This document shows positions 16,684 through 54,630 of a stretch of 64,000 nt of DNA, piece by piece. This DNA is from Neocallimastix lanati (nom. inval.) (Eukaryota > Neocallimastigomycota > Neocallimastigomycetes > Neocallimastigales > Neocallimastigaceae), in assembly GCA_016946835.1 (NCBI GenBank), contig JACVTC010000242.1, forward strand, positions 1-64,000. The letters run 5' to 3'. A program made the translations under genes and the position numbers. Numbering within the stretch: the first letter of the stretch is position 1; each line of letters starts with the position of its first letter. Under the pieces are notes generated by a model. The model saw only the letters and a program-made list of their open reading frames with translations. It made no database searches and was not told where the DNA came from.

Positions 16684-17242
16684 TGTAACTAATCTTAATG
16701 TTACTTAAGATTGTTTTTAAAGTTTTTTATACAAAAGTTTCTCTAAACAAAAGTAATTCAAAATATGATTTATTAAACAAGTTTTTTTTTATTAAAAAGA
16801 ATATAGTTTATTATTTTATTAATTTATCATTGTAATATTTTAAATTTCTTTAAAAATAATTAATAAAAGCACAAGTAAAAACATTTTATTATGAAAATTT
16901 ACACCTATTTATAGTTTTTAAGGAAAAATAATTATTTTAAATTATCAGTTATTATTAGTAATTATTAGTAATTATTAGAAATAAAAGAAAATTAAAGAAA
17001 ACAAGTTTTCTTTCTAGAAATGAATTTTTGATAAAAAATGATAAAAACTATTAATAAAATAGATTTTTCTAGTTTTATCGGTTCAATTGTTTAACCGATA
17101 AGACTAGTAATTTCTTTAATATTTTAGTTATAATAAATAAAAAATTATTAAAATTCGGAAAGAGAGTGTCGAATCCAAAGGATTCAGCCTGATGGTCACG
17201 GTAACCAACCATTTAACCATGGTTACTAATTTGCTAGTTATG

Positions 17243-18255
17243 TGTAATAATTTAATTATAATTTTAATTATAATTAAATTATTAAACTGCAACTTAATAA
17301 TTACTTTGTAAAAATTATTATTAAATTGAGAAAAATAAAATAAGAAATTTATACTTATCTAAATATTGAAGAGTTTATTATAACTAATTATAATAAACAA
17401 ATACCAAAGGTTACACGGATTTGTTACGAGAAAAAATTTTATTTATTTTATTTTTATTTTAAAATTTATTTTATTATTAAACTATCTTTATTAAATAAGA
17501 ACTATAAATATTTAATATTGTTATTATTATATTATAATTGTTATATTATAATCGTTATAATAATAACTCTTGATTTCTCAAAGAGAACTCAAGAGCCTTA
17601 TTTATACTTTTTTGAAAAATAAGGTTAAATTAAAAAATGTGTTTTCTAATCTTAACAAATCTCTTATCTAGGAAAAGATTAGAGAGAAAAATCTAGATAA
17701 GATTTTTAATCGATATTCTATTCATATCGATCATCGTATCAATTAGGTAAACCCAATTACTTTTAAGAAGTGATTGGGAAAAACCCTAATTAACCGATTT
17801 GCTAATCTAATCTAATTGATTGAAAATAAAAGAATAAAATAATAAAAGATATTTCGATCATAAAATCATAAATTTACAAATAAGTAAAATAACATATTAA
17901 TAATATTAATCAACAAAATATAGAATACATTATTAAATACATAATAGAATACATAATAGAATACATAAGAATACATAATGTGTTTGTTTACAGTTTAATT
18001 AAATAAATAAGCTAAGACATAAATTTAATAATTAAATGTATAATTAAATAAACTATAATTATTTATAAATGTATAAATAATAATTAATTAATTAAATTTT
18101 GTTATATTAAATTAATGAATATCTAATTTGAATTAAATAAATTATTAATAATATTTAAATGAATAAATATATTATAATTAAATAAAGTTATAATTATTAT
18201 AACTTAACTAAGAAAATATAATTATTTTATTTAAAAATAATTATAGAATCTTACA
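17243..18255 (-). mobile_element. Solo LTR G2
   Basis: TGTAATAATTT at the left and AGAATCTTACA at the right, flanked by a perfect 5-bp duplication TTATG on both sides. It is homologous to G1 (48617-49493): both contain the ACTCTTGATTTCTC hairpin and the AATCTTAACAAATCTCTTAT tract. 1013 bp, no internal genes. Confidence 0.9.
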
Positions 18256-18376
18256 TTATGTTGTAAAGAATTATAATTATTTTCTAAAATAATTATTATT
18301 CTTTATTAAAAAATTAATATTTAAAGTTTATTATTTATAAAATTCTACGAATAATTTTAATAATTATGTCACATAG

Positions 18377-19094
18377 TGTAAAAAGAGACACTAAAATAGA
18401 TTACAATAACAAGACACAATAAATTTTATTTTATTAAAAAAAATTTTTATTAAAAATATATTTTATTAATATTTAATATTTATTAATAGTTATTTGTTCA
18501 ATACGAATTACATCGAGAAAAAAATGTGAAAAGTATCTTCTATTTATACTTTTCCTAAATACATTGATAATATATTATTTTATTTAAATTACATATATTT
18601 TAATATAAAACTATCCTAATGAATTTTATTAAATAATAAATTTATAAACTATAGCTAAATTTAGAAAAATATAATTATTAATTAAACTAAATACTAAATA
18701 CTAAGTAATTAAAATTAAGTATATTTATTATCTATTTATTATTTTAATATTATAAGTAAAGTCTTTATTTATTTTCGATTTAAAAACAATGTTAAAAGAG
18801 TCATGATTAAATTTTGAAACTTAATTTTTACAAAATAAATTATTAATTTATTTTGTTTTAAACTTTAATTAATTTAAATTATTTTAAAACAATAATTTTC
18901 TCAGAATTAAATTTTATAAAAATTATTACATTAAAAATTTGTATTGTGGCTTAAAGAATATAATTCAAAAATTTAGTTCATATGATTTATTTACTTTGTT
19001 TATTATTTTATAAATCAAAGAATAATTTACATTTTTGAATTGGACAAGAAAAATTTTTAATTTAATATGTGATTGGGATAATCACATCTTTACA
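18377..19094 (-). mobile_element. Solo LTR C2 (family of element C)
   Basis: Reverse complement of the LTRs of element C: minus strand begins TGTAAAGATGTGATTATCCC and has the TATAAATAGAAGATAC promoter block. Flanks CATAG/TATAG (one difference). The uninterrupted H2 copy reads CATATAG at this point, confirming insertion into H1. Confidence 0.88.
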
Positions 19095-19721
19095 TATAGT
19101 AATTATTAATTAATGTTATTGTTTTAAAATTTATTTAAATTAAATTATCAATAATTAATATTTTTAATTATAATAATGTATTATTGTATTAAAATAATTA
19201 TAATTCTATTTAATTAAGAAAAATTAAATTATATTATTTCTTGGACATTTAATAAAAATATTAAAAGAATTAATTATTTAATTATACTTGTGATTGAATA
19301 TTAATAAAATTAATATATAATTAGTTAATAAATTTTCTCCCTTATTTGGGTTTTCTTATTAACTAAAGATTGATGTAATTAAACACCAATCGAAATCTAT
19401 AATTTTTTCTTCTAATCTTTTTCTAGATAGAAATAATTTTCCAATTTTAAAAATCAAATTAATATAAATAGAACTCTTGATTCTTCTAAAAATAATCAAG
19501 AGTTATTATTATAAAAATTATAATAATCAACACAAATAATTTAAAAAATACTTTTAATAAAAATTTTTATAATAAAATAATTTCTAAAATTGCATTTGAC
19601 TTTTAGTGTTGTTTATTATAATCTTATAATAAACTCGATAAGTTTTAATATAAAATTTTGTTTTCAATTTTATTTTATTTTTTCTTTTATCTCAATTAAT
19701 AATATTTTTTATTATTAATTG

Positions 19722-20245
19722 TGTAACGTGAATTCGGGGCGTAACCCAAAATAATTAACACCACTAGGTTTGTATAAAAAAAATAAATAATAAGTAAATA
19801 GTTTTTTAAGAAAAAAGAATTTATTATTTTTTTAAAGTTAAAATTTATTTTTATTTTTTTTTTTTTTTTTATTTATTTATTTTTTTTTTTTTATTTATTA
19901 ATTAAAAATTTGTAATTAAATTACTTATTAAATAATTAATAAAAAACACGATTTTTTAAAAATATTTTTTGAAGAAAAATTCACTCGTATTTATACAAAA
20001 AATTTTCAAAAGAAATTTTTTATGATGTAATTTTAAACCAATTAAGATAATTTGATAAAACTTTTGATAAAAATTTTTTTTTGATACGATAAGAACTTTT
20101 TAAAATAATTTTTGATAAGATAAGAATTTTTTAAAATAAATTTTTTTATAAAAAGAAATTATGCGGATTTGAACTCGAGAAGTTCAAATCGGTGACTTAG
20201 TTACTAACAATTAAGACAAGTTAATTATTTTTAAGATTCGTTACA
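19722..20245 (-). repeat. 3' LTR of element A
   Basis: 524 bp with perfect 7-bp inverted ends TGTAACG/CGTTACA. On the minus strand it holds a tRNA-like block (about 20225-20160, hairpin GATTTGAACT/AGTTCAAATC), a TATA box GTATAAATACG (19996-19986) and the tract GTGTTTTTTAT (19949-19939) complementary to the PBS. Confidence 0.92.
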
Positions 20246-20256
20246 TGGTCCTCCTC
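20246..20256 (-). other. Polypurine tract of element A
   Basis: The minus strand reads GAGGAGGACCA directly before the 3' LTR. Purine-rich sequence abutting U3 is the expected plus-strand primer site. Confidence 0.6.
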
Positions 20257-20389
20257 GAGGATTCGGATACCAAACGAATCTAATTCTAAACTAAAATTAA
20301 TTTTTAATATACTAACGAGTGAACTTTTTACATTTAACATACATGAATTAAAAATATTTAATAAATTTAACTATATTAAAAGATAAAAT

Positions 20390-20428
<39 letters not shown>

Positions 20429-20512
20429 TAATTTGATATTAATAAAATATTTAAATTCAATTTTGATATAAATAAGAGTTTAGATATAATTAATAAAATA
20501 AAATATTTTTTG
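20257..20512. other. 3' untranslated stretch of element A
   Basis: Between the pol stop and the PPT. A/T-rich with a long T run at about 20392-20422; no features. Confidence 0.6.
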
Positions 20513-23500
20513 TTATTTATCCCTTGAATTGAAATCCTTAAGAAGTTCAGGACAATTTAAATTAGATTCGGGTTCCCATGAAGATTCTGAAATTGGATAA
20601 CCTTTCCATTTGATTAAATATTGAATTTTTCCATAGTAAGTTCTTTTATCCAATATTTTCTCGACTTCATATTCTTCTTCATTATTGACTATTACTGGTG
20701 GTGGTGGTTGATTTCTTCCAAAAGTATCTTCGTAGTAAGGTTCAAGTTCTGAGACATGAATAATGGGATGAATTCGTAATTTCTTCGGAAGATCTAATTT
20801 ATAGGTAACTGGTGATACTTTCTGAATGATTTTGAAAGGACCGAGTTTTCTTGGTTTAAGTTTCTTGTTCTTATTTCTGAGTACTAAGGAGCTATTTAGC
20901 CAGACTTTGTCGTTTGCTTTAAATTCTGGAGGTTTAATTCGGTGTCTATTTGCATATTCTTCCTGCTTTTTGCTTGCAGACTCTAAGTTCTTCTTTAATT
21001 CTTTAGATAGATCTGTTAAGTTCTTCACAAGTTCTTCAGCTCTGGGAACATTTATGATACTTGGAATTTCAGGAGAATGTCTTGGGTTGTAACCGTAATT
21101 TGCAAAGAAAGGAGAATAATTAGAAGATTCCTGGAGAGCATTATTGTAACTGAATTCGGCTAAATAGAGATAATTCTCCCAATCTGATCCTTTGAAATTT
21201 GTGAAACATCTAAGGTATTGTTCTACAACGGAGTTCACCCTCTCCGTCAAACCGTTGGTTTGGTGATGGAATGGTGAAGAGTATTTCATATTAATTCCAA
21301 GAGCTTTACAGATAGCAATCCAAAATTTAGAAGTGAATTGGGATCCACGATCGGAAAGAATTTCATCAGGGAGTCCATGAAGTCTGAAGATCGATTTCAT
21401 GAAAGCAGAAGCGGTATCAATAGCAGAAGGGATATTTGCAAAAGGAATGAAGTGAGACATCTTGGAAAAACGATCAACGGTAACAAATATACAAGTAAAC
21501 CCATTGGAAAGTGGTAAATCAGTAATAAAATCCATAGAGACTGAAGACCAAGGACGAAAAGGGATTTCCAAAGGTTGTAAAAATCCGTAAGGTTTATGTC
21601 GGAGTACCTTTGAACGACAACAAGTTTCGCAAGATCGGATGTAGTCTTGAGCGTCAGAGTTAAGGGAAGGCCACCAAAAGTCACGATTTAAGAGATTAAT
21701 AGTTTTTTTAAAACCAAAATGACCTGCGGATGGAGAGTCATGACAAATTTTCAAGGCTAAAGACCGGCAGTTGGGAGGAACATAGAGTTTATTTTGGAAA
21801 AGTAAGTAGCTGTTACTAATTGAGAATTCCTTAATTTTTTGATGAGGGACAGGTAATTTCTTGTTTTCTAAGTAATCGCAAATGGAATGATAAAATGGAT
21901 CGGTTTTACATTCGGAAAGGATTTTTTCAGAAAATGTTTCAACAGAGACTGGAAAAGCAGAAAAGTTTTCTGGGCGGAGAACAGTAAATGGAATATCAGA
22001 AGTAGAAAATTCATAACTTAAAGCATAATCAGGTCTTCTTGATAAGGCATCGGGTTTACCATTGGAAGAACCTGAACGATATTCAATCTTGAAGTTAAAT
22101 TCTGATAAGAAGAGAGACCAACGAACAAGTCTTTGAGTCATTTTTTCAGGTTTCTTTTGATATAACAGGTTTCGGTGATCAGAGTAGATAATAAAAGGAT
22201 GAGTCGCACCCTTTAGAAAGTGTCTCCAATTTTCTAAAGAATCAATAATAGCTAAAAGTTCCTTATCGTAAATTGGATAATTTCTTTCAACAGGAGAGAG
22301 AGATCTTGAATAAAAGGCAATAGGATGAACTTTATTATCTTTAGGAGTCTTTTGAGAAAGGACAGCACCGATTGCAAAATTACTGCTGTCAGTTTCAACA
22401 GTGAAGGGTAGGTTACGATCAGGGTAAGCAAGGACCGGAGAAGAGGAAAATTTCGATTTAATATTATCAAAAGCTTCCTGAGCTTCAATTGACCATACAA
22501 ATTTAACGTTCTTTCTTAAAAGATGATTAAGTGGATGGGCTAGCTTGGCAAATCCAGGAATAAATCTTCTATAATAATTTGTGAGTCCAAGGAAAGATTG
22601 AATTTCTTTTACGCAAGTTGGAGTAGGCCATTCAAGAATTGAAGAAATCTTTTTGGGATCCATAAATATACCTGTAGCAGAAATTCTATGACCAAGGAAA
22701 TCTAAGTAAGGGACAAAGAATTCACATTTTTCTAGTTTCGCAAAAAGACCAGCTTTACGAAGTCTTTTGAGAACTTCGATAACGTGTTCAAAATGAGAAG
22801 ACATATCTGGGGAGAAGATTATAATATCATCGATATAACAGTAGACATATGTACCAAGAATATCTTCGAATACATCATTAATGAAGTGTTGGAAAACAGC
22901 TGGGGCATTTTTTAACCCGAAAGGCATAACCAAATATTCAAAGTGGCCATACTTGCAGGTAAAAGCTGTTTTATACTCGTCTCCTTCTTTTATTCTTACA
23001 AGATTATATGCAGAACGGAGATCGAGTTTTGAAAATACTTTACCTTTACCTAAATGTTCGAGCATGTCATTAATAAGTGGTAATGGATAAGAGTCCCGAA
23101 TTGTTATTTCGTTAAGTTTTCTGTAATCAACAACCATACGTAATTCACCATTCTTCTTAAAAACGAAGAATACAGGAGCACCAGCAGGAGATTTGGATTT
23201 ACGAATAAAGCCTTTTGAGAGATTTTCTTCAATATATTCTTTAAGAGCTTTAGACTCAGCATCAGTAAGCGAGTAGATAGGGCCATAATAAAGGATAGAG
23301 TTAGGCTTGAGCTTAATCTCACAATCATACTGCCTATGTGGTGGTAATATGTTTGCAGATCCTTCATCGAAAATATCTTTATAAGGTTGAAGTATAGTAG
23401 GCAATAATTTTAATATTCTATCAACAGTAGCAGGTTCTTTTTCTTTTGTAGAAGGGACAGTTGTAGGAGAAGAAATATGAGCTGTAAAAGAATTTGGAGT

Positions 23501-24664
23501 TAGTAAACAATTTGAAATACAATTGCTAGACTTAAAGGATAGTTCTTTAGTTACGAAATTTATTGTCGGATTGTGTGTGAATAACCAGTCAGTACCAAGA
23601 ATAGCACAGTAAGAGGGTAAATCAACAATGTAGAATTCAGCTTGACAAATATGATTTCCGTATTTGAGTGATATTGGTAAAGTTTTTCCCAGAATTAATT
23701 GATCACCTCCAATACCGGAAACGCTCGGTAATTTAGAATTTTCATTATAGGGAATGTTATTTTCTTTAGCGTAATAAACGTCCATAAGATTAAGTTGAGA
23801 ACCTGAATCCAGAAGAATCTTTGAATTAACTGAAACATCCGAAATAGAAAGAGTGAAATCAAAGATTGGAAGCCTGTGGTTAGGTTGGTCAGAAATTCTT
23901 GGCCTAAGAGTTGAATTTAAAACAGGATTTGAAATGTGAGAACTTGAAGAAGGTTTATTCTTTTTTAATTTAGGGCAATTTTCACGAATGTGATCTGGAT
24001 CGGCACAATAAAGACAAAGATGCTCTCTAATTCTTCTTTCTCTTTCTTCATTAGAAAGCTTACTAAAAGATTTATTATTGTTATTTGAAGATTTCTTTTT
24101 TGGAGTAAACTTTGGACATGTTTTATTATCATTCGAATGCTTATTATGATTAAAAAATTGTCTATGTGTAGAAATTCTAGAATCAATTCTTGCTGCAATA
24201 GTTTGAAGGGAAAGGAGATTTCAGGGACCAGGAAATATTTCTAATATTCTTGTTGCAATAGAATCTTGAAGACCAGCAATGAAAGCATCCATTTTTGCAT
24301 CCTCATTCCAAGAAGAATTATCGGAATATTTATTAAATTCATTGATATAACTTGTAATATCACCAAGTCTTCGTTGTTTAATTACACGTAGTTTTTGATT
24401 GGCGATAAATACTGAGTCGTTGTCTCCGAAAACAGCTTTCATTCTTTCTCTAAATGCTTGATAATCTCCAAGACAGTCATCCATAGCGTCACCGTAAAGT
24501 TTAGATATAAGATATATGACTTTAGCTTCATCGGTGTTGTATCTGTCTGGGTACAGCATAAAAACCAATTCAATTTTTGCTAAAAAACCCTTTAAGTAAC
24601 GACGGTCTCCTGCAAAACCATCTTTAAGAGTAGCATTATTTAAAATATTATTTTGATCTTCCAT
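20513..24664 (-). pseudogene. gag-pol: Gag-Pol polyprotein of element A, one in-frame TGA
   Basis: One frame of 1384 codons starting at ATG 24664, interrupted only by TGA at 24221-24223 (codon 148). Order: Gag capsid region; zinc knuckle [14 protein letters not shown] (CX2CX4HX4C) in the same frame after the TGA; protease LLDSGSQLN (about residue 286); RT with LDLRSAY and YIDD (about 610-613); RNase H beginning [11 protein letters not shown]; integrase with zinc motif [10 protein letters not shown]...CETCC and D,D,E residues in [14 protein letters not shown] and LTERVN; GPF/Y motif LGPFKI; C-terminal chromodomain ([20 protein letters not shown]). The C element has an Arg at the TGA position, so a CGA or AGA to TGA mutation is likely. 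The downstream half has its own Met at 23785, but that lies after the protease Asp, so it is not a natural start. Confidence 0.92.
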
Positions 24665-26024
24665 TTTAAATTAAATTTTTAAGAATTTTATCAAAATTTG
24701 AATACGATTATAAATTTTGTTAGACTAAACCTAAATTTTATATTTTAAGGATGTTTAGGATTGCTTTAAAACACAAGGTTTACTAGTAGTAAGAAATCAA
24801 ATAGTAGAATTAAGTCCTGGAGTAATTGGAAAACCAAGGGAATATATCTGAATAGAAGTTCACCAAAGTAGTTGTAAGGATACCAATAAAGAGGATAATA
24901 CTAAAAGGTAGAAAAGACTCAAAACAGTAAAAACAAGAAGTAAATACAAAAAGTAAAGCTCAAAGGTAGAAATTCAAAGTTGAAGCACAGTGAAACACTG
25001 AATGATGCAAAAATATAGGAGCCTAAAGTAAGAATTCAAAGTAGTAACTAAAGGTAAAACTTGAAAGGTAGAAACCAAAGTATATCTTGAAATCAAAGAA
25101 AGGTAAAAACCAAAAGTATATCTTGAAGGGTAGAAACCAAAAGTATATCTTGAAGGGTAGAAACCAAAAATATATCTTGATAGGGTAGAAACCAAAAGTA
25201 TTTCTTGAAGGGTAGAAACCAAAAGTATATCTTGATAGGGTAGAAACCAGAAGTATATCTTGAAGGGTAGAAACCAAAAGTATATCTTGAAGGGTAGAAA
25301 CCAAAAATATATCTTGAAGGGTAGAAACCAAAAGTATATCTTGAAGGGTAGAAACCAAAAGTATATCTTGAAGGGTAGAAACCAAAAGTATATCTTGAAG
25401 GGTAGAAACCAAAAATATATCTTGATAGGGTAGAAACCAAAAGTATATCTTGAAGGGTAGAAACCAAAAATATATCTTGATAGGGTAGAAACCAGAAGTA
25501 TATCTTGAAGGGTAGAAACCAAAAGTATATCTTGATAGGGTAGAAACCAAAAGTATTTCTTGAAGGGTAGAAACCAAAAGTATATCTTGAAGGGTAGAAA
25601 CCAAAAATATATCTTGATAGGGTAGAAACCAAAAGTATTTCTTGAAGGGTAGAAACCAAAAGTATATCTTGATAGGGTAGAAACCAAAAGTATTTCTTGA
25701 AGGGTAGAAACCAAAAGTATATCTTGAAGGGTAGAAACCAAAAGTATATCTTGAAGGGTAGAAACCAAAAGTATATCTTGAAGGGTAGAAACCAAAAATA
25801 TATCTTGAAGGGTAGAAACCAAAAGTATATCTTGAAGGGTAAAAACCAAAAGTATTTCTTGAAGGGTAAAAACCAAAAGTATTTCTTGAAGGGTAGAAAC
25901 CAAAAGTATTTCTTGAAGGGTAGAAACCAAAAGTATATCTTGAAGGGTAGAAACCAAAAATATATCTTGATAGGGTAGAAACCAAAAGAAAGAATTTATA
26001 CAAAGGTAGTGGTTCTTTTCAGTG
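24665..26024. other. 5' leader of element A
   Basis: About 1.36 kb between PBS and gag. Positions 24760-25082 hold decayed copies of the repeat below (scattered AAAGGTAGAAA motifs). No upstream gene is seen. Confidence 0.7.
25083..25987. repeat. 27/28-bp tandem array, about 33 copies
   Basis: Unit on the plus strand: AAGGGTAGAAACCAAAAGTA then TATCTTG. Some units have GATAGGG instead of GAAGGG (28 bp). Variants alternate (TATATC, TATTTC, ACCAGAAG), so the array is not homogenised. Because 27 is a multiple of 3 and the unit has no stops, long frames appear on both strands; they are not credible proteins. Confidence 0.95.
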
Positions 26025-26035
26025 GTGTTTTTTAT
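26025..26035 (-). other. Self-priming primer binding site of element A
   Basis: The 11 bases directly after the 5' LTR on the minus strand are ATAAAAAACAC. They are the exact complement of GTGTTTTTTAT in the 3' LTR (19939-19949), about 45 bases downstream of the TATA box. The 5' LTR copy has one T fewer. No match to a tRNA 3' end (TGG...) is visible. Confidence 0.7.
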
Positions 26036-27192
26036 TGTAACGTGAATTCGGGGCGTAACCCAAAATAATTAACACCACTAGGTTTGTATAAAAAAATAAA
26101 TAATAAGTAAATAGTTTTTTAAGAAAAAAGAATTTATTATTTTTTTAAAGTTAAAATTTATTTTTATTTTTATTTTTTTTTTTTATTTATTTTTTTTTTT
26201 TTATTTATTAATTAAAAATTTGTAATTAAATTACTTATTAAATAATTAATAAAAACACGATTTTTTAAAAATATTTTTTGAAGAAAAATTCACTCGTATT
26301 TATACAAAAAATTTTCAAAAGAAATTTTTTATGATGTAATTTTAAACCAATTAAGATAATTTGATAAAACTTTTGATAAAAATTTTTTTTTGATACGATA
26401 AGAACTTTTTAAAATAATTTTTGATAAGATAAGAACTTTTTAAAATAATTTTTGATAAGATAAGAATTTTTTAAAATAAATTTTTTTATAAAAAGAAATT
26501 ATGTGGATTTGAACTCGAGAAGTTCAAATCGGTGACTTAGTTACTAACAACTAAGACAATTTAATTATTTTTAAGATTCGTTGATACGGTATTTACCCAA
26601 ATACCTTAAATTATAATAATTTTAATATTTCTCCATATAAATATGTTTTAAATCTATTTTATTAATTAATTATTATCTTTATTAACTTTATCAATATTTC
26701 CTTTATTATTATATAAATATATATATTATTAATTATTAATATTTTGCTATAAAATAAATATTTTATTATATTCTTATTATATTTTTATTATACATTTGAT
26801 AAATTTTATTTTATATTATAAATTTTTTTTATTATTTTTATTATTAATATTCATATCTAAAATTTTATTATTATTTTATTGTTACACAAAATTATTTTTA
26901 ACTAATCAATGTATTACCAAAATTTATAAAATATTTTGTAATAATATTATTTTAAATCTCTCTCTTTTCTTTTTTTTATGTAATGGAGGAATAAATAAAT
27001 AAATGAACAAATAAATAAATGGATGAATAATATATAGTTAAATAAATTTTTAAATAAATAAATTAATAAATAATCAATAAATAAATAAATAAATATTGTA
27101 TAAGTTTTTCGTAATTTTTATACGTCTACTATCTATTTACCAATATATTATTATACATCCATCAATTTCAAAAGTCCTGTACCATCGTTACA
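26036..27192 (-). repeat. 5' LTR of element A, interrupted by LTR Y
   Basis: Homologous to the 3' LTR over 26036-26581; the last bases (TACA) follow Y at 27189-27192. It contains one additional copy of a 31-bp unit (GATAAGATAAGAACTTTTTA...) and a tRNA-like block at 26501-26556. Confidence 0.88.
26582..27184. mobile_element. Solo LTR Y inside the LTR of A
   Basis: Starts TGATACGGTA and ends GTACCA. The 4-bp sequence TCGT occurs on both sides (26578-26581 and 27185-27188), and removing the insert with one copy restores GATTCGTTACA, the expected end of LTR A. An alternative cut gives a 5-bp duplication TCGTT. The family was seen only once. Confidence 0.75.
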
Positions 27193-29253: not shown

Positions 29254-29260
29254 CTCATAA

Positions 29261-30012: not shown

Positions 30013-32012
30013 CATAACTTATTTATACCTGATATTCTTAATCTACAAAGTTAAATTTTGTAGAAGTGAATAAGAGGATAAATACTGAATAAAATAGATT
30101 TAAGAAATTTTAAAAAAATAAATATGTTTTATTATTAAACACAAAAATGTTTTATTAAAAAAAATTTATTTTTATTTTAATATTAATCTTTATTTTATTT
30201 AATAATTAATTTTGTTTAAATTAATAAAATAATTGTTAAAACTAATAAAATAATAAAAAGAAATATTTATTATTTATACTAATTTATTTTAAATTTTAAT
30301 AATAAAATTGATTATTATTAACTAATAAAATATATATAATAATTTATTAAATAATTAATAATCATACTTTTTGATTACTAAAACTAATAAAATATCTATA
30401 ATAATTTATTAAATAATTAATAATCATACTTTTTGATTATTAAAACTAATAAAATATATATAATAATTTATTAAATAATTAATAATAATGAATAATTTAT
30501 AAGAAATATTTACATGTTTTTATATTTTTCTTTGATTTTAAACTACATACATTAAAAATAATAAAATCAATAAAAGAGAAATAAAGAATAATTTATTATT
30601 AAATTAAACAATATTTACAATTAAAATATTAATAAAGATGAGTTTTAAAATGTTATTTTAATTACAATTTGTTTATAAAAGTTGAGTTATAAAATAAATA
30701 AAATAATCATTATTTTAAATAAAAGTAACTTAAAAATTATTTAACTATTTAATTTTAATTTTGAGATGTTTATAAGTTTGTTTATTTGTTATTTATAATT
30801 TATTAAATTTGTTTATTATTTTGTTTATTTGTAGTTAGAAAAATATTATTTATTAATTTATTTTAGTTTTTAATTAAAATTACTAATGATTAATTAATTT
30901 ATTATTATTTTATTTTAATTATTTTTATTTAATTAAATTTTCTTTAATATGGATTTAATTTTTTTTTAGAATGGATTAATTTTTGGGTTAAGTTAGACAA
31001 GAATTTGTTCTTTATTATTTATTTTAATTTAATAATTTTGTTATTTATCATAACTAGTTAATTAGTGACCATGGTTCAATGGTAAGTTACCATGACCATC
31101 AGGCTGAACCCTTGGGTTCGGCACCGACTCTTTCCAAATTTTAATAACTTTTTATTTATTATAACTAGAATATTAAATAAATTACTAGTGCTTATAGGTT
31201 AAATAATTGAACCGATAAAACTAGAAAAATCAATTTTATTTATATTTTTTATCATTTTTTATCTAAGATTCATTTTCTAGAAAGAAAACTTGTTTTCTTT
31301 AATTTTCTTTAATTTTCTTTTATTTCTAATAATTACTAATAACAACTGATAACTTAATATAATTAATTTTCCTGAAAAACTATAAATAGATGTAAAATTT
31401 CATAATAAAATGCTTCTACTTGTGCTTTTATTAATTAATTTTAAAGTAATTTAAAATATTACAATAATTAATTAATAAAATAATAATTTATATTTTTATT
31501 AATAAAATAAACTTATTTTAATAAAACATATTTTGAATTACTTCAGTGTCGAGAACCTTTTGTGTGAAAACCTTAAAACAATCTTAAGTAACATTAAGAT
31601 TTGTTACAATTATTTAATATTATTTGTGATAATGTTTAGAAATAATTTTAAACTTTAATTATTAAAGTTTGCTATTAATTTATGGTTTAAATTTTAATTA
31701 TCATTATTTAATAATTTTGTATATGAGTCAGCGATATTAATAATATTTATCTAAAATTAATTTAATAAAATTTAATAAAAAAATACTGATAAATATAATT
31801 ATATTTGTGAAAATTATAATAAATTTTATTATTATAAATTTTATTATTATAAATTTTATTTTTTAATATTTAGTTTTATTATATCTATGTATTTTAATTT
31901 TCTTTTAATTAATAAAATTTATATTTTGATTAATTTCTTTTATTTTAATTGATAAAATTTATATTTAGACTAAGAAATATAGAAAATATTTCTATATTTT
32001 TTACATTATGAG

Positions 32013-33644: not shown

Positions 33645-34994
33645 TGTAAAGATATGATTATTCCAATCACATTTTGAATTAAAAATTTTTCTTGTGTAAA
33701 TCAAAAATGTAAATTATTCTTTGATTTATAAAATAATAAATAAAGTAAATAAATCATATAAATTAAATTTTTGAATTATATTCCTAAAGCCACAGGTAAA
33801 TTTTTAATATAACAATTTTCGTAAAAATTAATTCTGAAAAAATTATTGTTTTACAATGATTTAAATGAATTGATTAAAGATTAAAACAAAATAAATTAAT
33901 AATTTATTTTGTGAAAATTACGTTTCAAATTTTAATCATGACTCTTTTAACATTGTTTTTAAATTGAAAATAAATAAAGATTTTACTTATAATATTAAAA
34001 TAATAAATAGAAAATAAATGTACTTAATTTAAATTACTTAGTATTTAGTTTAATTAATAATTATATTTATAACAAAATATTATAATAAATGTAAAAAAAC
34101 ACTGAATTAGAAATTTTCTTTTTAATCTTATTTTATTTTTTTATAAATTTTATTTATTTATATTTATTATAATACTATAAGCCGCAAGGGTTGATATAGT
34201 ATTAATTTTTTCTACAAAAGTTTTATTAAAATTGAATTTTATTAACTAACGAATTAAAATAAAAAACACAAAGAAAGAAAATTTTTTATTATGAATTTTA
34301 CTCATATTTATATTTTTTTTTCAAAAGTTTAAGTTATTTAAAAATAAAAAATAAAAGTTTCTAAAAAGTTCTTAAAATTCGAAAAATTTAGAAAAAATAG
34401 AAAATAATAGAATTAAGAATATAATAGAATAAATTTTAATTAATTAAACATAATAATTATCAAGAAATTCTAGTAATTTCTTGAACTATAAAGAATCTTC
34501 TAGATATTTTTTAGAATAAAATTATAAAATAATAATAAATGTGAATCGAACCCTAAGTAGTTTGATTCATGGTACTAGTTACTAACAACTATACTAGTAA
34601 TAGTATTTCTTAAATTTAATTATTTGTTTTAAAAGTTTATTGAAAAATAATACTAAATATTAAAAATAATAAAATAATTGTAACTATTGATTTTGTTATA
34701 ATATTTTTCTAAATTTAGCTATAGTTTATAAATTTTTTATTTAATAAAATTCATAGGATAGTGTAAAGATGTAGTTTTAAATTAAAATATATGTAATTTA
34801 AATAAAATAATATATTATCAATGTATTTAGGAAAAGTATCAATAGAAAATACTTTCACATTTTTTTTTTCGATGTAATTGTTAATATCTATTAATAATTA
34901 TATAATAGTAAGAAAAAAAATTTTTAATGAAAAATTTTAATAAAATAAATTCTTATTGTGTTGTTATTGCAATCTATTTTGGTGTCTCTTTATA
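33645..34994 (+). mobile_element. Solo LTR C3 (family of element C), split by I1
   Basis: Begins TGTAAAGATATGATTATTCC and follows the C LTR to CTTTATA, with I1 inserted at 34068. Flanks AAGCT/AAACT (one difference). About 717 bp without I1. Older than the LTRs of C, judged by visible substitutions. Confidence 0.85.
34068..34700 (-). mobile_element. Insert I1 with 11-bp terminal inverted repeats
   Basis: Perfect ends TATAACAAAAT/ATTTTGTTATA and perfect flanking duplication ATATT; removing it restores the C LTR reading TTATATTTTTCTAAATTTAG. Inside, on the minus strand, are a tRNA-like block (34602-34541, B-box GGGTTCGATTC) and a TATA box TATAAATATGAG, so it is built like an LTR although it does not start with TG. 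It has no coding capacity. Confidence 0.8.
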
Positions 34995-35688: not shown

Positions 35689-36276
35689 TGTAACGAATCC
35701 AAAAGTTAATAAAATCCAAACCATAGTCTGTTGGTTAGTTTTAATAAAATGACCTATACTTCATAGGTACGATTCCGACCTCAAGTCATTTTAAAAAATT
35801 ATTAATTTAATATTTATTAATAATATTTTCTATAATTTTCTTTCTGTAAAAAATTAGAGAATTTAATAGAATTTCATTGCTTTATAATCTTACTGAATGA
35901 AATTAGAAAATTCTTATTTTTGAAAATTTTATCATTTTTATTTTATGATTCATTTTTATTGATAAAAATCCATTTTATATAACTTTTTATACATTTTCAT
36001 TAAAGAAATTATTTTTCTGGAAAAAGTTTAAGTAGGTGTGAAATTTTTAACAAATTTTGATTTCTTTGTGTTTTATTTTACTTATAAATTTATAAGTAAT
36101 TATTAGTTATAGTCAATAAATATTTTAATAATTTTAAATAAAATTAATAAAACAAGTTATAAAACCATTTTTATTTTAATTTCAATTACTTATATAATTT
36201 ATAATACTGACCTGTTGGGTAATAGAGTTTTATTTGTTTATATTAATCCATTAATAATAGTATACTAAAGGTTACA
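35689..36276 (+). mobile_element. Probable solo LTR P
   Basis: TGTAACGAATCC at the start and GGTTACA at the end, 588 bp, flanks TTAAT/ATAAT (one difference, A/T-rich, so weak). A tRNA-like block with A-box-like CATAGTCTGTTGGTTAG and B-box-like GGTACGATTCCGACC lies at 35721-35790. Copia sequence flanks it on both sides. Confidence 0.65.
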
Positions 36277-38156: not shown

Positions 38157-38859
38157 TGTAAAGATGTGATTATCCCAATCACATTTTAAATTAAAAATTT
38201 TTCTTGTGTAATTCAAAAATGTAAATTATTCTTTGATTTATAAAATAATAAACAAAGTAAATAAATCATATGAACTAAAATTTTGAATTAAATTCTTTAA
38301 GCCACAATACAAATTTTTAATGTAATAATTTTTATAAAATTTAATTCTAAGAAAATTATTGTTGTAAAATAATTTAAATGAATTAATTAAAGTTTAAAAC
38401 AAAGTAAATTAATAATTTATTTTGTGAAAATTAAGTTTCAAAATTTAATCATGACTCCTTTAACATTGTTTTTAAATTGAAAATAAATAAAGACTTTACT
38501 TATAATATTAAAATAATAAATAGATAATAAATGTACTTAATTTTAATTATTTAGTATTTAGTTTAATTAATAATTATATTTTTCTAAATTTAGTTATATT
38601 TTATAAATTTATTATTTAATAAAATTCATTAATATAGTTTTATATTAAAATATATGTAATTTAAATAAAATAATATATTATCAATGTATTTAGGAAAAGT
38701 ATAAATAGAAGATACTTTTCACATTTTTTCTCGATGTAATTGTTATTTTAACAAACAACTATTAAATATTAATAAAATATATTTTAATAAAAAATTTTTT
38801 AATAAAATAAAATTTATTGTATTTTGTTATTGTAATCTATTTTAGTGTTTTCTTTTACA
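38157..38859 (+). repeat. 5' LTR of element C
   Basis: 703 bp. U3 opens with the hairpin GTGATT/AATCAC. TATA box GTATAAATAGA (about 38699) is followed 31-35 bases later by TCGATGTAATTGTTAT, the predicted mRNA start. GTAATTGTTAT at 38736-38746 is complementary to the PBS. Confidence 0.93.
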
Positions 38860-38870
38860 ATAACAATTAC
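38860..38870 (+). other. Self-priming primer binding site of element C
   Basis: ATAACAATTAC directly abuts the LTR and is the exact 11-nt complement of GTAATTGTTAT at the predicted mRNA 5' end. This is the Tf1/sushi self-priming layout. Confidence 0.85.
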
Positions 38871-44018: not shown

Positions 44019-44037
44019 TCTCGCAGGAGCTCGATTT

Positions 44038-44049
44038 AAGGAGGGAGAT
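44038..44049 (+). other. Polypurine tract of element C
   Basis: AAGGAGGGAGAT abuts the 3' LTR. The preceding TCTCGCAGGAGCTCGA is shared with K. Confidence 0.75.
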
Positions 44050-46073: not shown

Positions 46074-46790
46074 ATAATTATTCATAAAACAATTTAATAA
46101 TAAAGCTAATTTAATAATAAAATATAAAATAAAATAAAATATTAAAACTAATTAAAAATTCTCTTTCGGAAATCTTTAGAATGATAAAGAATTCCTTAGA
46201 ATCTTTTAGAAAATAATTGAATAAAATATTATAATAAAATATATAAAACTTATAAAATTATTTAAAATATTATAAAACTATTACTAATAATTAATCTGTA
46301 TTTTTAATTAATAATAAAAATTAATAATATAATTTCCAAGTTAAGAGATTTTATCTTATATAGTTTCTAATTAATAATTTAGGGTCTTAATTAAATAATT
46401 AAATTATTTTTTATATTTAGAATATCTTTAAAGTCCAATATCTTGTTATCTAGTTGTCCAATAAGGTTGGTTTTAACATATGTTGTAGTTCTCGTCCGTA
46501 GCTTTCTAAAGAATATACTTTTAGCGGGAAATCACGATATAATATTTCCATTATTTGTTGAGTTATCGTTGTTTTTCTTCAAGTTATTTTTATCAAATTC
46601 TTAAGGGTTAAAATAAATTAAATTATCTTTAATAAATAAGTCCAAACCCTTTGGTTTCTAATTATTTAATGTTTCTAATATTTATTTTTATAATTAAAAT
46701 CAAATTAAAATAATTTTTATCAATAACTAAATTAAATTTTGATTTATCTAATAGTGAATTTTAATCTCAAATCCACTAGTATTTGTGACA
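46074..46790. repeat. 3' part of an LTR of family S
   Basis: About 710 bp nearly identical to 52165-52888, the 3' part of LTR S. It begins exactly at the end of M2 and lacks the 5' 470 bp of S. Ends AGTATTTGTGACA against AGTATTCGTTAAA in S. Confidence 0.85.
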
Positions 46791-47813: not shown

Positions 47814-48611
47814 TGTAAGAAACGATAATTATTTGTTAAATAATTATAATTTCTTTATTTGATTATTTATCTATTATATAATTTATACATTCATTCATTA
47901 AATTAGTAATTATTTATCAAGTTAACATGTATTTGTACATTTAATTATAGTTTTAATTTAATTAAAAAATTTTTTCTTTAAATTTATTTAGTATACATTT
48001 ATTTTATTTAATTTATTTAATTAATTATAAATTTTATTAATTTTTATAGTAATAAATTAATTATTTAATTATTATTTTTAATTAAAATTTGAATTAACGG
48101 ACTTTAAAGTTTTTTTATTTTCTTATTAAAATATAAATTAATTTTATCGGACTTTAAGGTTTTTTCTAATTTATTATAATAATAAATTGGTTTTTCCTTA
48201 AAGAACTTATCTAGTTTTTTCTTCTAATCTTTTTCTAGATAAGATAATTGTTAAGATTAGAAAACCTTTTAAATTATTATTTTATATAAAATTTATAAAA
48301 TTTTATTATTTAATTTTTCGTATAAATAGCTATTGATTTCTCTAAATTTTTGAGAAATCAAGAGTTATTATTATATAACAAATATTAATAAATATATAAT
48401 AATAATTAATAAAATCTACAAACATTTTCAATAAGTGTTCTTTTATTTTGTGTTGTTTATTATATTTGTTTATAATAAACTCTTCTCTGTCAAGATAAGT
48501 TAAAATTTTCTTTATTTTTTCTAATTGTTTTCTTATTTTCTCAACTTGATGTTAGTATCAGGTTGTAGTTAATAATTTTGTTATAATAAATATTATAATG
48601 AAATTATTACA
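47814..48611 (+). mobile_element. Solo LTR F1
   Basis: TGTAAGAAACG to ATTACA, 798 bp, with perfect duplication GTATC. Opens with hairpin ATAATTATTT/AAATAATTAT. TATA box CGTATAAATAGC is followed at once by hairpin TTGATTTCTC/GAGAAATCAA. Confidence 0.92.
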
Positions 48612-48616
48612 GTATC

Positions 48617-49493
48617 TGTAATAATTCTATTAAGAACTAACTCAAAATAGAATTATTAACTACAACTTAACGACTAATTCATTAAGTTGAGAAAATAAAA
48701 TAAAATAAATTTTTTTACCTTTAATGTAGAGTTTATTATAAAATTAATTATAATAATAACACAAAATGTAAGAGAAGAATTGTTTGTATAAATTGATCTT
48801 AAAAATATGTTTTTGAATAAAATATTTTTATTAATTTATTAAAGTTAAAAATATAAAATTGTTACTATTATAACTATGTTTTTTTATAATAATAACTCTT
48901 GATTTCTCAAAGAGAACTCAAGAGCCTTATTTATATTTTTTTATGAAAATAAGGTTAAATAAGAAAGAGTTTTCTAATCTTAACAAATCTCTTATCTAGG
49001 AAAAGATTAGATAGAAAAACCTAGATAAGTTTTCGATCGATATTCTATCCATATCGATCATCGCATTAATTAAGTAAAACCGATTACTTCTAAAAAGTAA
49101 TTGGAAAAAATCTTAATTAACCGATTTTCCAATCTAATGATCGAAAATAAAAGAATAAAATAATAAAAAATATTTCGATCATATAATTTATCCTTATATT
49201 AAAAATATAAAATTAAATAGTTAATAAAATACAGAATACATTATAAAATACAGAATACATTATAAAATACAGAATAAAATACAATACAAAATACATTAGT
49301 TACAGTAGAGAATTTAGCATATTGTAAATATATTATTTAAAATTAATTAAATAAATTTTGTTAAATTAATGAATATTTAAAATTAAATTAAATAATTTAA
49401 TAAATATTATATGTAATTAAATAAAGTTATAGTTATAATAACTTAACTAAGAAAATATAATTATTTGCTAACAAATAATTATAGATTCTTACA
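48617..49493 (-). mobile_element. Solo LTR G1
   Basis: Plus-strand ends TGTAATAATTC and GATTCTTACA, 877 bp, homologous to G2. Flanks GTATC/ATATC (one difference); F1 later entered exactly at its left border. The minus-strand start carries hairpin ATAATTATTTG/CAAATAATTAT. Confidence 0.82.
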
Positions 49494-49889
49494 ATATCGT
49501 TATAACTTGGCTGAAGTTACTCAATGGTACCTACCTTGAGTTACCATAATGGATGACGCAAGTTCGAATTTTACATTTTACCTTTTTGATAAAATAATTT
49601 AATTAATTCTTAATTCATTCATTTAATTATATTTATTTAAAATATTAATAATCATTCATTTAATTAAATTTATTTAATTATTTAATATTTATCCATTTAT
49701 AATCAATCAATCATGTAATAGAATAATTTTTATCTTTGAATATAAATAACATGTATTATTATTTTATTTTGACTCTTCCAGTCAATATTGCTTAACGTGA
49801 ATAATAAATAAATAAAATATAATATAAAACCATAAAATATAATTTTATTATTTTTTCAATTTATTTATTTACTTCATCTACAACGACCT
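49494..49889. other. Probable LTR fragment with tRNA-like block
   Basis: At 49503-49575 the sequence has a D-arm-like CTCAATGGTA and a B-box-like CAAGTTCGAATT, followed about 170 bp later by a TATA-like ATATAAATAACATG (about 49739). Element E coding starts just downstream, so this may be what is left of its 5' LTR and leader. Confidence 0.45.
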
Positions 49890-51697: not shown

Positions 51698-52888
51698 TGT
51701 TAAATTAAATTGTTTATTTAGGTAAGATTCTTGCTATATCTTTCCTAGTTTAGGTTAAATTGGTCAGGTCAAGATGTTCCTATTAATTATAACAATTTAA
51801 TTAAAATTAAATAATAAATAACACACACAGAGTTTTATAATTAAGATTTCAATATTTAAGATTTATGTTTTATTAGAACTTTATTTAATATATTTTTTAA
51901 TAATAAATTAACTAAGATTAATATAAAAATTATTTATTGTTATAATTAATTCATTAATTTTATGTTAATACGTTAAAAGGTTAATAATCTTTCAAAGAAT
52001 TCAAAATATGGAATTTCAAATCCTTTTTATACTAAACTAAAATAATAATAAACAATATAATTAAATAATACATTCTAATCTTAACATATTCATACATGTA
52101 TATAAACTATATAAAATATAATAATAAAATAACATTGATAAGAATCTTTTAATACAATAACTATATAATTATTCATTAAACAATTTAATAATAAAGCTAA
52201 TTTAATAATAAAATATAAAATAAAATAAAATAAAATATTAAAACTAATTAAAAATTCTCTTTCGGAAATCTTTAGAATGATAAAGAATTCCTTAGAATCT
52301 TTTAGAAAATAATTGAATAAAATATTATAATAAAATATATAAAACTTATAAAATTATTTAAAATATTATAAAACTATTACTAATAATTAATTCTGTATTT
52401 TTAATTAATAATAAAAATTAATAATATAATTTCCAAGTTAAGAGATTTTATCTTATATAGATTTCTAATTAATAATTTAGGGTCTTAATTAAATAATTAA
52501 ATTATTTTTTATATTTAGAATATCTTTAAAGTCCAATATCTTGTTATCTAGTTGTCCAATAAGGTTGGTTTTAACATATGTTGTAGTTCTCGTCTGTAGC
52601 TTTCTAATGAATATACTTTTAGCGGGAAATCACGATATAATATTTCCATTATTTGTTGAGTTATCGTTGTTTTTCTTCAAGTTATTTTTATCAAATTCTT
52701 AAGGGTTAAAATAAATTAAATTATCTTTAATAAATAAGTCCAAACCCTTTGGTTTCTAATTATTTAATATTTCTAATATTTATTTTTATAATTAAAATCA
52801 AATTAAAATAATTTTTATCAATAACTAAATTAAATTTCAATTGATCTAATAGTGAATTTTAATTTCATATTCAATAGTATTCGTTAAA
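51698..52888. mobile_element. Solo LTR S inserted in element E
   Basis: 1191 bp from TGTTAAATT to TTCGTTAAA, flanked by a perfect duplication TGATT. Excision joins GATGCCAGTGATT to TTGCTGTTGGC, restoring DASDFAVG of RNase H. The 3' 720 bp recur at 46074. Confidence 0.85.
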
Positions 52889-52928
52889 TGATTTTGCTGT
52901 TGGCTTCATTCTTTCACATGTTAGTCCT
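52889..52928 (+). pseudogene. Element E: 13-codon RNase H island between two LTRs
   Basis: The 40 bases between S and R translate to NDFAVGFILSHVSP, exactly the missing part of RNase H between DASD (51697) and KDILLHPVVFYS (54634). It shows that S and R hit the same gene 40 bp apart. Confidence 0.9.
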
Positions 52929-54630
52929 TGTAACGAATACTAAAATGTTATGGCTCGAGGAATTAAAAAAAAATTATATAATATTAAAACATTAAATAAG
53001 TAGAAAATTTACTACACATAATAATTTTTATTTATTTATTTTATTTTTATTTTAATTTTTATTTTATTTTTATTATTATTTTTATTTATTTATTTTATTT
53101 TTATTTATTTTATTTTTATTTATTTTATTTTTATTTATTTTATTTTTATTTATTTTATTTTTATTTATTTTATTTTTATTTATTTTATTTTTATTTATTT
53201 TATTTATTATTTCTATTTTATTTATTATTTCTATTTTATTTATTATTTCTATTTTATTTATTATTTCTATTTTATTTATTATTTCTATTTTATTTATTAT
53301 TTCTATTTTATTTATTATTTCTATTTTATTTATTATTTCTATTTATTCTTTTTTTTCTCCCCCCTAGAAAGGGATTCCAAGGTAGTCAATTTATATCTTT
53401 TTGAAGATATAAAAGTAGCAAGGCCTCTGGAAATAGTTGAAGAGATGGAAAAACAATAGATTTTTAAATCTTATTGATTATTTCCTTATTGTAATAAATA
53501 GAAATTTTATTATTTCCTAATATTCAAATTAACTAAAATAAATCTATAATATAAAAGATGCATTATAGATAAGAATTAAATAAAAAAAGAAGCAGCATTA
53601 CAATAAAATTGAATATTTTAACTTAATTTTGATACTAATTTAATATGTAATCTTATATATTAATTTGAATGACATAATAGAAAATAAAATACATTTATTA
53701 ATATATGAAAAATCTTTTACAATTTTAAATACAGAAAAAATTTTTTTTATTTATTTCTTTCATTTCAATTATTTCTTAATTCGAAAGACAGAAATATTGA
53801 ATAAGTTATTTAAGTTATTTATATACAGTAATTATTCCTTATTTAGAAGAATAATACTAAAAGTAATTAGTACTATGTTGTTGATAGACTCTCATAAATT
53901 TAATTTACCTTTAAAAAGAATGAACATAAATTTAAATTAAATTTTATGTATAAAACTTAAATTTTTAGATCAAATAATATAGTAAAATTATTAATGTAAA
54001 GAATACATAAATTTATTAATATTTTAAAAATCACATTGACTATATTAAGAGGTTTTTAATAAGAATCAATTTATTATTTCATTCTTTATCAAAAATTTGT
54101 TAAAGGAAATCTTGGTATAGCTGTTAGAGCTATAGCAATGAATCGAACTACTCGAGTTTGATTCACACTTACACCTACTTTTTGAATATTTCATTTTCAT
54201 TGTTCTAGTTAATTCTTTCTGTATTTTCTTTAAGAATTTCATAGAAATTCTTAATAATCAAATTTTTATTTTTATTTTATTTTATCCTTTATTCCATTAG
54301 TTTCTAAATTAACCGCGAAAATCAGTTTTAAACGATTTTTCTAAGATTATAAAATTTTTGAAAATCATACAAACTTTTTTTTCCGTAAAAAGTATAAATA
54401 TGAGTAAAATTTTCACAAAAGAAATATTTTTAATTCGTGCTTTTATTAATTAATCAATTAATAATAAGTAATTTGGTATATTACAAAATTAGTTAATTAA
54501 TAAATAAATAATTACTTTAATAAATTTTATTTTAATAAATTAATAAAACAAAATTTTTTAAAAAGACATTTTAACTTATTATTAATTTTCCAGTGTTGCC
54601 TATTGCTATATAAGTGACCAGCTCGTTACA
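52929..54630 (+). mobile_element. Solo LTR R inserted in element E
   Basis: TGTAACGAATAC to GCTCGTTACA, 1702 bp, flanks GTCCT/GCCCT (one difference). Contains an A/T satellite (53040-53345), a tRNA-like block (54111-54170), TATA box AGTATAAATATGAG (about 54399) and a TTCGTGCTTTTATTAATT block resembling the R start of A. A 91-codon frame at 53665-53940 has no motif. Confidence 0.8.
53040..53345. repeat. TTTATTTATTTTAT / TTTATTATTTCTAT satellite
   Basis: About ten copies of a 16-17-base unit TTATTTTTATTTATTT pass into about nine of a related unit with TATTATTTCT. Lies inside LTR R and helps explain its length. Confidence 0.9.

What the first reader, a model, noticed from the sequence alone, without database searches (positions are those of the whole stretch)
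17160..54170. tRNA-like A-box/B-box blocks at a fixed place in the LTRs of at least six different families
Seen: short G+C-richer islands with D-arm-like and T-arm-like (GGTTCGA-type) sequence occur, in LTR orientation, in LTR A (20225-20160 and 26556-26501, minus), I1 (34602-34541, minus, with GGGTTCGATTC), I2 (35412-35359, minus), Z1 (17230-17160, minus), Z2 (31064-31130, TGGTTCAATGG and GGGTTCGGCACC), R (54111-54170), P (35721-35790, CTGTTGGTTAG and GGTACGATTCCG) and an LTR-like fragment (49503-49575). Each lies roughly 170-250 bp upstream of the TATA box, and in most the B-box arm folds into an 8-11 bp hairpin. The LTRs are otherwise unalike. Known parallel: Cassandra elements of plants carry 5S rRNA promoters in their LTRs. 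Inference: the block may recruit TFIIIC, acting as insulator, targeting signal or accessory promoter, or be a tRNA mimic. I know of no description of this in fungal Ty3 elements.
Basis: partly seen in the sequence, partly recalled or inferred. Interest (0 to 1): 0.88.

Follow-up and report, generated by a model that had tools for sequence, protein, structure and literature searches.

The report
Retrotransposon LTRs with tRNA-like landing pads
One lineage of jumping genes in an AT-rich, probably fungal genome carries a small imitation of a tRNA-gene promoter in its end repeats, and other jumping genes that also insert beside tRNA genes insert at nearly the same distance from these imitations.

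Summary
The blocks are real. A model built from ten representatives of nine families finds 8 of the 9 reported blocks at 38.9-74.8 bits, next best 13.6. They are like type-2 Pol III promoters: A box and B box in tRNA order, no tRNA fold. The A box starts at LTR base 28-38 in LTRs that begin TGTAACGA; window member A is an autonomous chromodomain element. Of 20 sampled PPT/LTR junctions, 18 carry the block.

Their neighbours show what they do. LTR elements K and X (no Pfam chromodomain) and other foreign ends abut the blocks mostly 14-17 nt from the pseudo-tRNA start; K and X abut real tRNA genes at 13-15 nt. Of 16 K insertions whose outer 5' flank I read, 10 lie at LTR blocks, 4 at tRNA genes, 1 at a truncated tRNA gene, 1 at an unassigned A-box-like sequence. 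In 40 blocks sampled by B box alone, 15 have a foreign end, all at 14-18 nt.

Best reading: the block assembles TFIIIC/TFIIIB and is a mobile landing pad for tRNA-targeting retrotransposons. Assembly, transcription and benefit to the carrier are inferred. Both halves (Pol III boxes in LTRs; Pol III-targeted integration) are known; I found no description of the combination.

The parts
20156..20225 (-). block A1 in the 3' LTR of the autonomous element A; A box T8 at 20218; intact LTR start after polypurine tract (20238-20253)
   Evidence: R2 62.2 bits; position
26496..26565 (-). block A2 in the 5' LTR of element A; A box T8 at 26558; foreign end (..GTATCA) stops at 26582, spacing 16 nt
   Evidence: R2 63.5 bits; positions; L009 row
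34533..34603 (-). block I1 (family I; LTR start about 100 bp upstream)
   Evidence: R2 74.8 bits; LTR start inferred from L213
35351..35421 (-). block I2 (family I, decayed boxes)
   Evidence: R2 63.5 bits
17158..17226 (-). [not shown]
   Evidence: R2 38.9 bits; positions
31065..31134 (+). [not shown]
   Evidence: R2 48.7 bits; L039 row
54106..54174 (+). block R; A box T8 at 54113; LTR of family X stops at 54091, spacing 14 nt
   Evidence: R2 72.6 bits
35717..35785 (+). block P; LTR start TGTAACGAATCC intact at 35689
   Evidence: R2 58.7 bits
49503..49575 (+). weak, diverged block F; foreign end (..GATTCTTACA) stops at 49493, spacing 16 nt if the A box is at 49517
   Evidence: sequence; not recovered by model
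20516..24220 (-). pol of carrier element A: RT, RNase H, integrase, Tf2-1-like SH3, chromodomain
   Evidence: Pfam
2598..3457 (-). LTR of targeting family K; its 5' end (3457) lies 13 nt before a real tRNA gene
3471..3546 (+). real tRNA-Arg gene beside the K LTR
   Evidence: ARAGORN, Rfam
53061..54091 (-). LTR of targeting family X (5' end at 54091; other end not fixed), landed upstream of block R
   Evidence: 91.9% match to the LTR of a complete X element in L070; copies

Best explanation
The block is a type-2 (tRNA-like) RNA polymerase III promoter carried near the 5' end of the LTR (U3) by a clade of Ty3/Gypsy elements (the one whose pol I read has a chromodomain). In the cell it assembles TFIIIC and then TFIIIB at a tRNA-like distance upstream. 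Integrases of other Ty3/Gypsy families (K, X and probably several more), which also land on real tRNA genes, use that complex and insert 14-17 nt before the pseudo-tRNA start. Shown: box conservation, position, occupancy, spacing, target-site duplications, and use of the same window at real tRNA genes by the same families. Inferred: that TFIIIC/TFIIIB are what the integrases see (about 0.85), that Pol III makes a short RNA there (about 0.5), and that the carrier benefits (boundary or open-chromatin element, or harmless landing spot; unresolved).
For: (1) Ten representatives of nine families align almost without gaps on A box, spacer and B box. (2) K: of the 16 insertions whose outer 5' flank was read, 10 abut a block (R2 53.2-74.2 bits), 4 a tRNA gene above Rfam's cut-off, 1 a truncated tRNA-Ser (22.8 bits), 1 an unassigned sequence with an A-box-like motif at the same spacing; a further one is the tRNA-Arg in the window. 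(3) Spacing to the A-box frame, 44 block rows: 14 (17), 15 (12), 16 (7), 17 (4), 18 (1), 19 (1), 10 (1), 55 (1, a misread cap); 10 real tRNA genes: 13 (2), 14 (4), 15 (4) (the real-tRNA values were read by hand, one of them, L074, after allowing for two changed terminal bases). (4) The junction lies near LTR base 5 in family A and base 14 in family Z, but at the same distance from the A box, because the A box starts at base 28 against 36. (5) Forty blocks sampled by a B-box 14-mer only: 23 intact LTR starts, 15 foreign CA ends all at 14-18 nt (7 of them K ends), 2 otherwise disrupted. (6) 11 of 13 full-length K copies have a target-site duplication of at least 4 bp (7 of 4 bp, 4 in T runs). 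(7) The two complete elements read on Z blocks have identical LTRs over the aligned length (845/845 and 1049/1049 bp), so landing is recent. (8) Negative control family E38: 10 copies, 20 flanks (some of them internal sides), no tRNA and no block. (9) Precedent: TRE5-A integrates at A/B-box loci lacking tRNA context, read by its authors as TFIIIC/TFIIIB assembly (PMC5391098, section 17).
Confidence: 0.86

Rival explanations
1. The block is primarily a structured RNA element of the carrier's genomic RNA (two hairpins just after the polypurine tract in U3); the Pol III boxes are ancestral leftovers and landing is a side effect.
For: Both helices covary across the 10 rows: score 0.343 against 0.184 +/- 0.028 in shuffles, 0 of 500 as high; 79.4% of cells paired against 27-40% when slid.
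Against: Canonical box positions, including the unpaired GTTAG loop, are conserved; integration at tRNA spacing needs the DNA to be read as a Pol III gene. Relatedness of the rows inflates the covariation test. RNAalifold alone predicts only hairpin 2.
Confidence: 0.1
2. Solo TFIIIC (ETC-type) insulator sites without TFIIIB.
For: The B box is well conserved; ETC sites are a known class (PMC5391098, section 17).
Against: An A box at tRNA distance is conserved, and LTR elements land at the tRNA-gene spacing; [quoted passage not shown]
Confidence: 0.07
3. K and X recognise the carrier LTR end or AT-rich DNA, not Pol III machinery.
For: Junctions fall near the LTR start of TGTAACGA carriers.
Against: The same families sit at the same spacing before real tRNA genes with no TGTAACGA start; spacing is constant to the A box although the LTR-start-to-A-box distance differs (28 against 35-38); the E38 copies read show none.
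Confidence: 0.03
4. Ordinary tRNA pseudogenes or SINE fragments inserted in LTRs by chance.
For: tRNA-like boxes; SINE insertion into an LTR is a proposed origin for such TRIMs (PMC10886601 abstract).
Against: Near-gapless conservation across families at nearly the same LTR position, present in 60 of 60 A and Z copies held; no tRNA fold.
Confidence: 0.02

Closest known systems
Helenus (TRIMp3) non-autonomous LTR retrotransposons, Kojima 2024, PMC10886601 (abstract, passages and sections 12 and 20 read)
   Same: tRNA-derived sequence with boxes A and B conserved inside LTRs; mostly no functional tRNA predicted; found in fungi (Pucciniales, some Agaricomycetes).
   Different: Helenus are TRIMs of 311-1263 bp without genes, in which the boxes are taken to be a Pol III promoter for the element. 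Here the carrier read (A) is about 6.9 kb with a chromodomain pol, the block sits near the U3 start, and it is used as an integration target by other elements. No integration at Helenus is described in what I read.
Cassandra TRIMs (recall, and as described in PMC10886601)
   Same: Pol III promoter in the LTR.
   Different: 5S rRNA type, plants, non-autonomous; landing by other elements not described in what I saw.
Ty3 (S. cerevisiae), PMC8632968 (passages read)
   Same: Ty3/Gypsy element integrating in a narrow window upstream of Pol III genes through TFIIIB.
   Different: K makes mostly 4-bp target duplications, and K and X target LTR-borne promoters of other retrotransposons; TFIIIB contact is untested for them.
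Tj1 of S. japonicus, PMC4600332 (abstract read)
   Same: LTR element integrating within 12 bp upstream of tRNA genes in the assay described.
   Different: Targets genes; no LTR pads reported in the abstract.
DGLT-A and TRE5-A of Dictyostelium, PMC5911963 (passages) and PMC5391098 (abstract, section 17)
   Same: DGLT-A sits 13-33 bp upstream of tRNA genes; TRE5-A integrates at A/B-box loci without tRNA context.
   Different: Those non-tRNA loci are on the extrachromosomal rDNA element, not in the LTRs of another mobile element.

Membership tests
Type-2 (tRNA-like) Pol III promoter | A box and B box in order at tRNA-like distance | tested here: met
   alignment A1; shuffle test, with the caveat that only 4 of the window's 9 blocks meet the near-strict consensus
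Type-2 (tRNA-like) Pol III promoter | TFIIIC/TFIIIB occupancy and Pol III transcript | not testable with these tools
   no ChIP or RNA data; integration spacing is indirect evidence
Functional tRNA gene | cloverleaf recognised by a tRNA model | tested here: not met
   ARAGORN and Rfam find 16 tRNAs, all at 3471-11222, none in the blocks
Helenus / TRIMp3 | tRNA-derived sequence with boxes A and B in the LTR | tested here: met
Helenus / TRIMp3 | short non-autonomous element (311-1263 bp in the paper) | tested here: not met
   element A spans 19722-26582 with a 1235-codon pol frame
Chromovirus (carrier A) | integrase with C-terminal chromodomain | tested here: met
   PF00385 at 1184-1233, 63.5 bits; only carrier A was tested
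Pol III-targeting Ty3/Gypsy element (K) | integration in a narrow window upstream of Pol III genes | tested here: met
Pol III-targeting Ty3/Gypsy element (K) | integrase contact with TFIIIB through a vestigial chromodomain, as in Ty3 | not tested
   Pfam at E <= 1e-5 shows no chromodomain in K or X, but whether Pfam would see Ty3's vestigial one was not tested
ETC (extra TFIIIC site) | TFIIIC bound without TFIIIB | tested here: inconclusive
   landing at tRNA spacing argues for TFIIIB, indirectly
Cassandra | 5S-derived promoter in a TRIM LTR | tested here: not met
   no 5S match in the window; carrier A is long and coding

The most novel reading that the evidence does not exclude
One retrotransposon lineage manufactures and spreads tRNA-gene-like landing pads, and tRNA-targeting retrotransposon families (shown best for K: 10 pads against 4-5 tRNA genes in 16) now land on these mobile pads more often than on real tRNA genes. 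Landing no longer depends on the limited set of tRNA genes, and piles of elements grow at the pads. The pad may even serve the carrier as a lightning rod: an insertion at the start of the 5' U3 spares its genes and promoter, and the lost end is copied back from the 3' LTR at the next transposition (inference).
Probability: 0.7. Interest if true: 0.88.

Novelty: new variant of a known kind. Interest (0 to 1): 0.8.

Why it matters
It gives a natural, high-copy reporter of Pol III factor assembly in an organism group with little molecular genetics, and shows one class of mobile DNA creating the target niche of another: a transposon ecology in which the 'safe haven' itself is mobile. It offers an explanation for nested retrotransposon clusters in such genomes. 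It also means that Pol III-promoter-bearing LTRs are not confined to miniature elements, so tRNA-like sequences in autonomous LTRs elsewhere deserve the same neighbour test.

Tried and rejected
tRNA scanning and Rfam on the blocks: nothing, even at E 10 over all families. A/B-box counts with one mismatch in each box discriminate poorly (27 against a mean of 14.65, maximum 21). Idea that truncated LTR starts came from template switching or assembly joins: rejected by complete elements with target duplications and by the same ends before tRNA genes. Idea that the element in L071 (TGTTTGG.. LTRs) is the one landed there: dropped, its end lies about 800 bp away from the junction. 'Best PDB hit is Ty3' as an argument about K was dropped: carrier A hits Ty3 even better. 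Homologue search with K gave mostly unnamed proteins; the named ones among the 120 listed are Orpsp1 entries (a prefix I recall as Orpinomyces, an anaerobic gut fungus) and the pseudoscorpion Cordylochernes scorpioides. The organism is not established.

Rows left out of counts: K copies C561, C231, C739, C395, C156 (the flank at the LTR 5' end is internal; only the outer 3' flank was read) and C346, C89, C96, C446 (flanks not fetched); C258 and C110 were read on one side; at C9 the other side is internal. In one search, 5 of 60 A/Z copies were 'other' (L024, L034, L049, L056, L067) and 2 missed the A-box pattern (L010, L047); L066 (55) is a misplaced cap and L038 (10) is odd. Likely duplicates within the counts: L018/L019, L055/L061, L116/L117 (near-identical flanks), L076/L209 (one insertion seen twice); L122/L125 are identical in sequence and only L122 is in the real-tRNA tally.
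Full report
OBSERVATION. The window is C160:1-64000 of a 199-Mb, 762-contig, very AT-rich genome. ARAGORN and Rfam find 16 real tRNA genes, all at 3471-11222, and none in the reported blocks; a permissive Rfam scan of 12000-64000 also gives none. The nine stretches read as described. I aligned ten block sequences from nine families (A, U, I1, I2, R, S, Q, T, Z, P); four of the families (U, S, Q, T) came from elsewhere in the genome. The alignment is almost gapless, with an A box of the form TRGYNNARNNG(G)TTAG and a B box like GTTCGANTC. A model from it recovers eight of the nine window blocks (38.9-74.8 bits; next 13.6). A sequence-only model ranks a real tRNA-Gln gene (6239-6294, E 0.002) as its best non-block match in the window. 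In shuffled sequence the near-strict A+B pair count falls from 7 to a mean of 0.40; at the loosest setting it falls from 27 to 14.65 (maximum 21).

WHERE IT SITS. The 60 copies of families A and Z that I hold (30 each, among the best 40 scored) all carry the block, at 41.7-65.9 bits; three of them (L025, L027, L037) have small deletions in it. A junction pattern of polypurine tract plus LTR start (GAGGACCATGTAACGA, at most 2 mismatches) occurs 346 times against 10 for its reversed control. Every fifth of the first 100 listed was read (20): 18 carry the block at 61-74.1 bits, two (L134, L137) do not. So the block is a conserved part of one clade sharing TGTAACGA ends; its A box starts at LTR base 28 (A, U) or 35-38 (Z, S, Q, T, R). 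Family I carries it about 100 bp in (L213). The carrier in the window, element A (19722-26582), has a pol with RT, RNase H, integrase and a chromodomain; pols of other carriers were not read.

STRUCTURE. Two hairpins covary across the ten rows: hairpin 1 pairs the 3' half of the A box with the following stretch around a GTTAGT-type loop, hairpin 2 has the B box as its 3' arm. Covariation score 0.343 against 0.184 +/- 0.028, 0 of 500 shuffles as high, and far above slid versions. RNAalifold alone predicts only hairpin 2. These are not the tRNA D and T arms. Related rows inflate such a test, so I treat it as suggestive.

THE KEY OBSERVATION. About a third of the A and Z copies lack their first bases and are joined there to foreign sequence ending in CA; the same foreign end occurs in front of different families. 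I read upstream of four such junctions. Two show complete LTR elements directly at the junction, with identical LTRs over the aligned length: K (845/845 bp, in L072) and X (1049/1049 bp, in L070). L069 ends in part of a K LTR beside a Copia element, and L071 was not resolved. In L072 the first bases of the Z LTR lie on the far side of the K element with the duplication ATAA. The K LTR is also in the window at 2598-3457, ending 13 nt before the tRNA-Arg gene. So one family sits both before a real tRNA gene and before an LTR block.

TESTING IT FROM THE K SIDE. The genome search scored 40 K candidates. I fetched 40 flanks of 210 bp. For 16 insertions the outer 5' flank was read (for 13 of them both outer flanks): 10 abut a block (five of family Q, five of family S; 53.2-74.2 bits), 4 a tRNA gene above Rfam's cut-off (Ser, Thr and two whose type ARAGORN left open), 1 a truncated tRNA-Ser (22.8 bits, below the cut-off), and 1 (L095) an unassigned GC-rich sequence with an A-box-like motif at the same spacing. 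In 15 of 16 the K 5' end faces the target, in one (C73) the 3' end. Five more copies were read only on the outer 3' side, where neither block nor tRNA was seen. 11 of 13 full-length copies have target duplications of at least 4 bp, two do not (C554, C215). X gives the same picture less completely: of 20 5'-end flanks, 5 are internal, 3 abut tRNA genes (Gly, Gly, Met; the two Gly flanks are nearly identical), 2 an identical truncated tRNA-Ser, and 10 show neither; several of those 10 abut another LTR-like start after a few bases (my reading), and their other end was not read. X also abuts blocks R (window), A (L036) and Z (L055, L060, L061). K and X pol are 71% identical over the main alignment, K and A 32%; Pfam at E <= 1e-5 finds no chromodomain in K or X.

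CONTROLS. Family E38, an LTR without block, read on both sides of 10 copies (20 flanks, some internal): no tRNA, no block. 160 bp on either side of the 60 A and Z copies (120 segments, some internal or foreign ends) contain no tRNA gene, so there is no sign that these carriers target tRNA genes themselves.

MECHANISM. The spacing is constant to the A box while the distance to the LTR start differs between families, and the same families use nearly the same spacing at real tRNA genes, so the simplest cause is the Pol III initiation complex. Ty3 contacts TFIIIB directly (PMC8632968, passages). In Dictyostelium, TRE5-A integration at A/B-box loci without tRNA context was read as TFIIIC/TFIIIB assembly, and the authors contrast it with TFIIIB-free ETC sites (PMC5391098, section 17). 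By the same logic the LTR block is a working assembly site. Whether Pol III transcribes it, and why the carrier keeps it, is open: boundary or open-chromatin function, a short RNA, or a lure that keeps insertions out of its genes.

WHAT IS KNOWN. tRNA-like sequence in LTRs is described for Helenus TRIMs, including fungal ones (PMC10886601; abstract, passages, sections 12 and 20), and 5S-type in Cassandra. Pol III-targeted LTR elements are known in yeasts and Dictyostelium (PMC4600332 abstract; PMC5911963 passages). Ten searches showed me no autonomous LTR element with a tRNA-type promoter serving as landing pad for others; the library holds open-licence papers only, and for most hits I saw the listing alone.

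Noticed in passing
window 3471-11222: Cluster of 16 tRNA genes in under 8 kb, next to the nested retrotransposon cluster; tRNA-Arg (3471) has an LTR end (K) directly upstream; the others were not checked one by one.
   Followed up: partly
L114, L115, L118, L124, L126, L129, L131, L132; L080, L089, L096: Beyond the non-target end of X and K another LTR-like start often follows after only a few nt, as if several families landed serially at the same pad.
   Followed up: no
K flanks L073-L112: Strong orientation bias: in 15 of 16 read K insertions the 5' LTR end faces the Pol III target. [quoted passage not shown]
   Followed up: no
L095 (C31:520071-520280): GC-rich sequence next to a K end with an A-box-like TGGCTCGCTGG at the usual spacing, a B-box-like stretch and a T7 run, no Rfam match: possibly an undescribed Pol III gene.
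   Followed up: partly
window 26036-26582 and internal side of 5' LTR (L009): In element A the first internal bases (AACACCACT) are complementary to AGTGGTGTT near the LTR end, reminiscent of Tf1-type self-priming (recall).
   Followed up: no
window 25098-25988 and 1222-1569: About 33 copies of a 27-bp unit in a long open frame of element A, probably its gag region; a 40-bp array lies at 1222-1569, in the stretch matching the K element.
   Followed up: no
window 38157-38864 and 55477-56249: Two other LTR families (E38, E55) start TGTAAAGAT followed at once by a hairpin and gave no block hit in the window.
   Followed up: partly
L069: A Copia-type element lies directly beside a K LTR match cut to 442 bp, itself upstream of a Z block: apparent three-level nesting.
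   Followed up: no
L134, L137: Two TGTAACGA-clade LTR starts without a recognisable block; useful as natural controls.
   Followed up: no
C90:353463 and C90:367608 (L118, L119): Two X LTR ends about 14 kb apart in opposite orientation with identical outward flanks over the stretch printed: perhaps a large inverted duplication.
   Followed up: no
L016:2253-2322 and L062:147-215: Two further strong block hits (65.7 and 62.1 bits) lie within about 1.3 kb of an A and a Z copy, so blocks of different families cluster.
   Followed up: no
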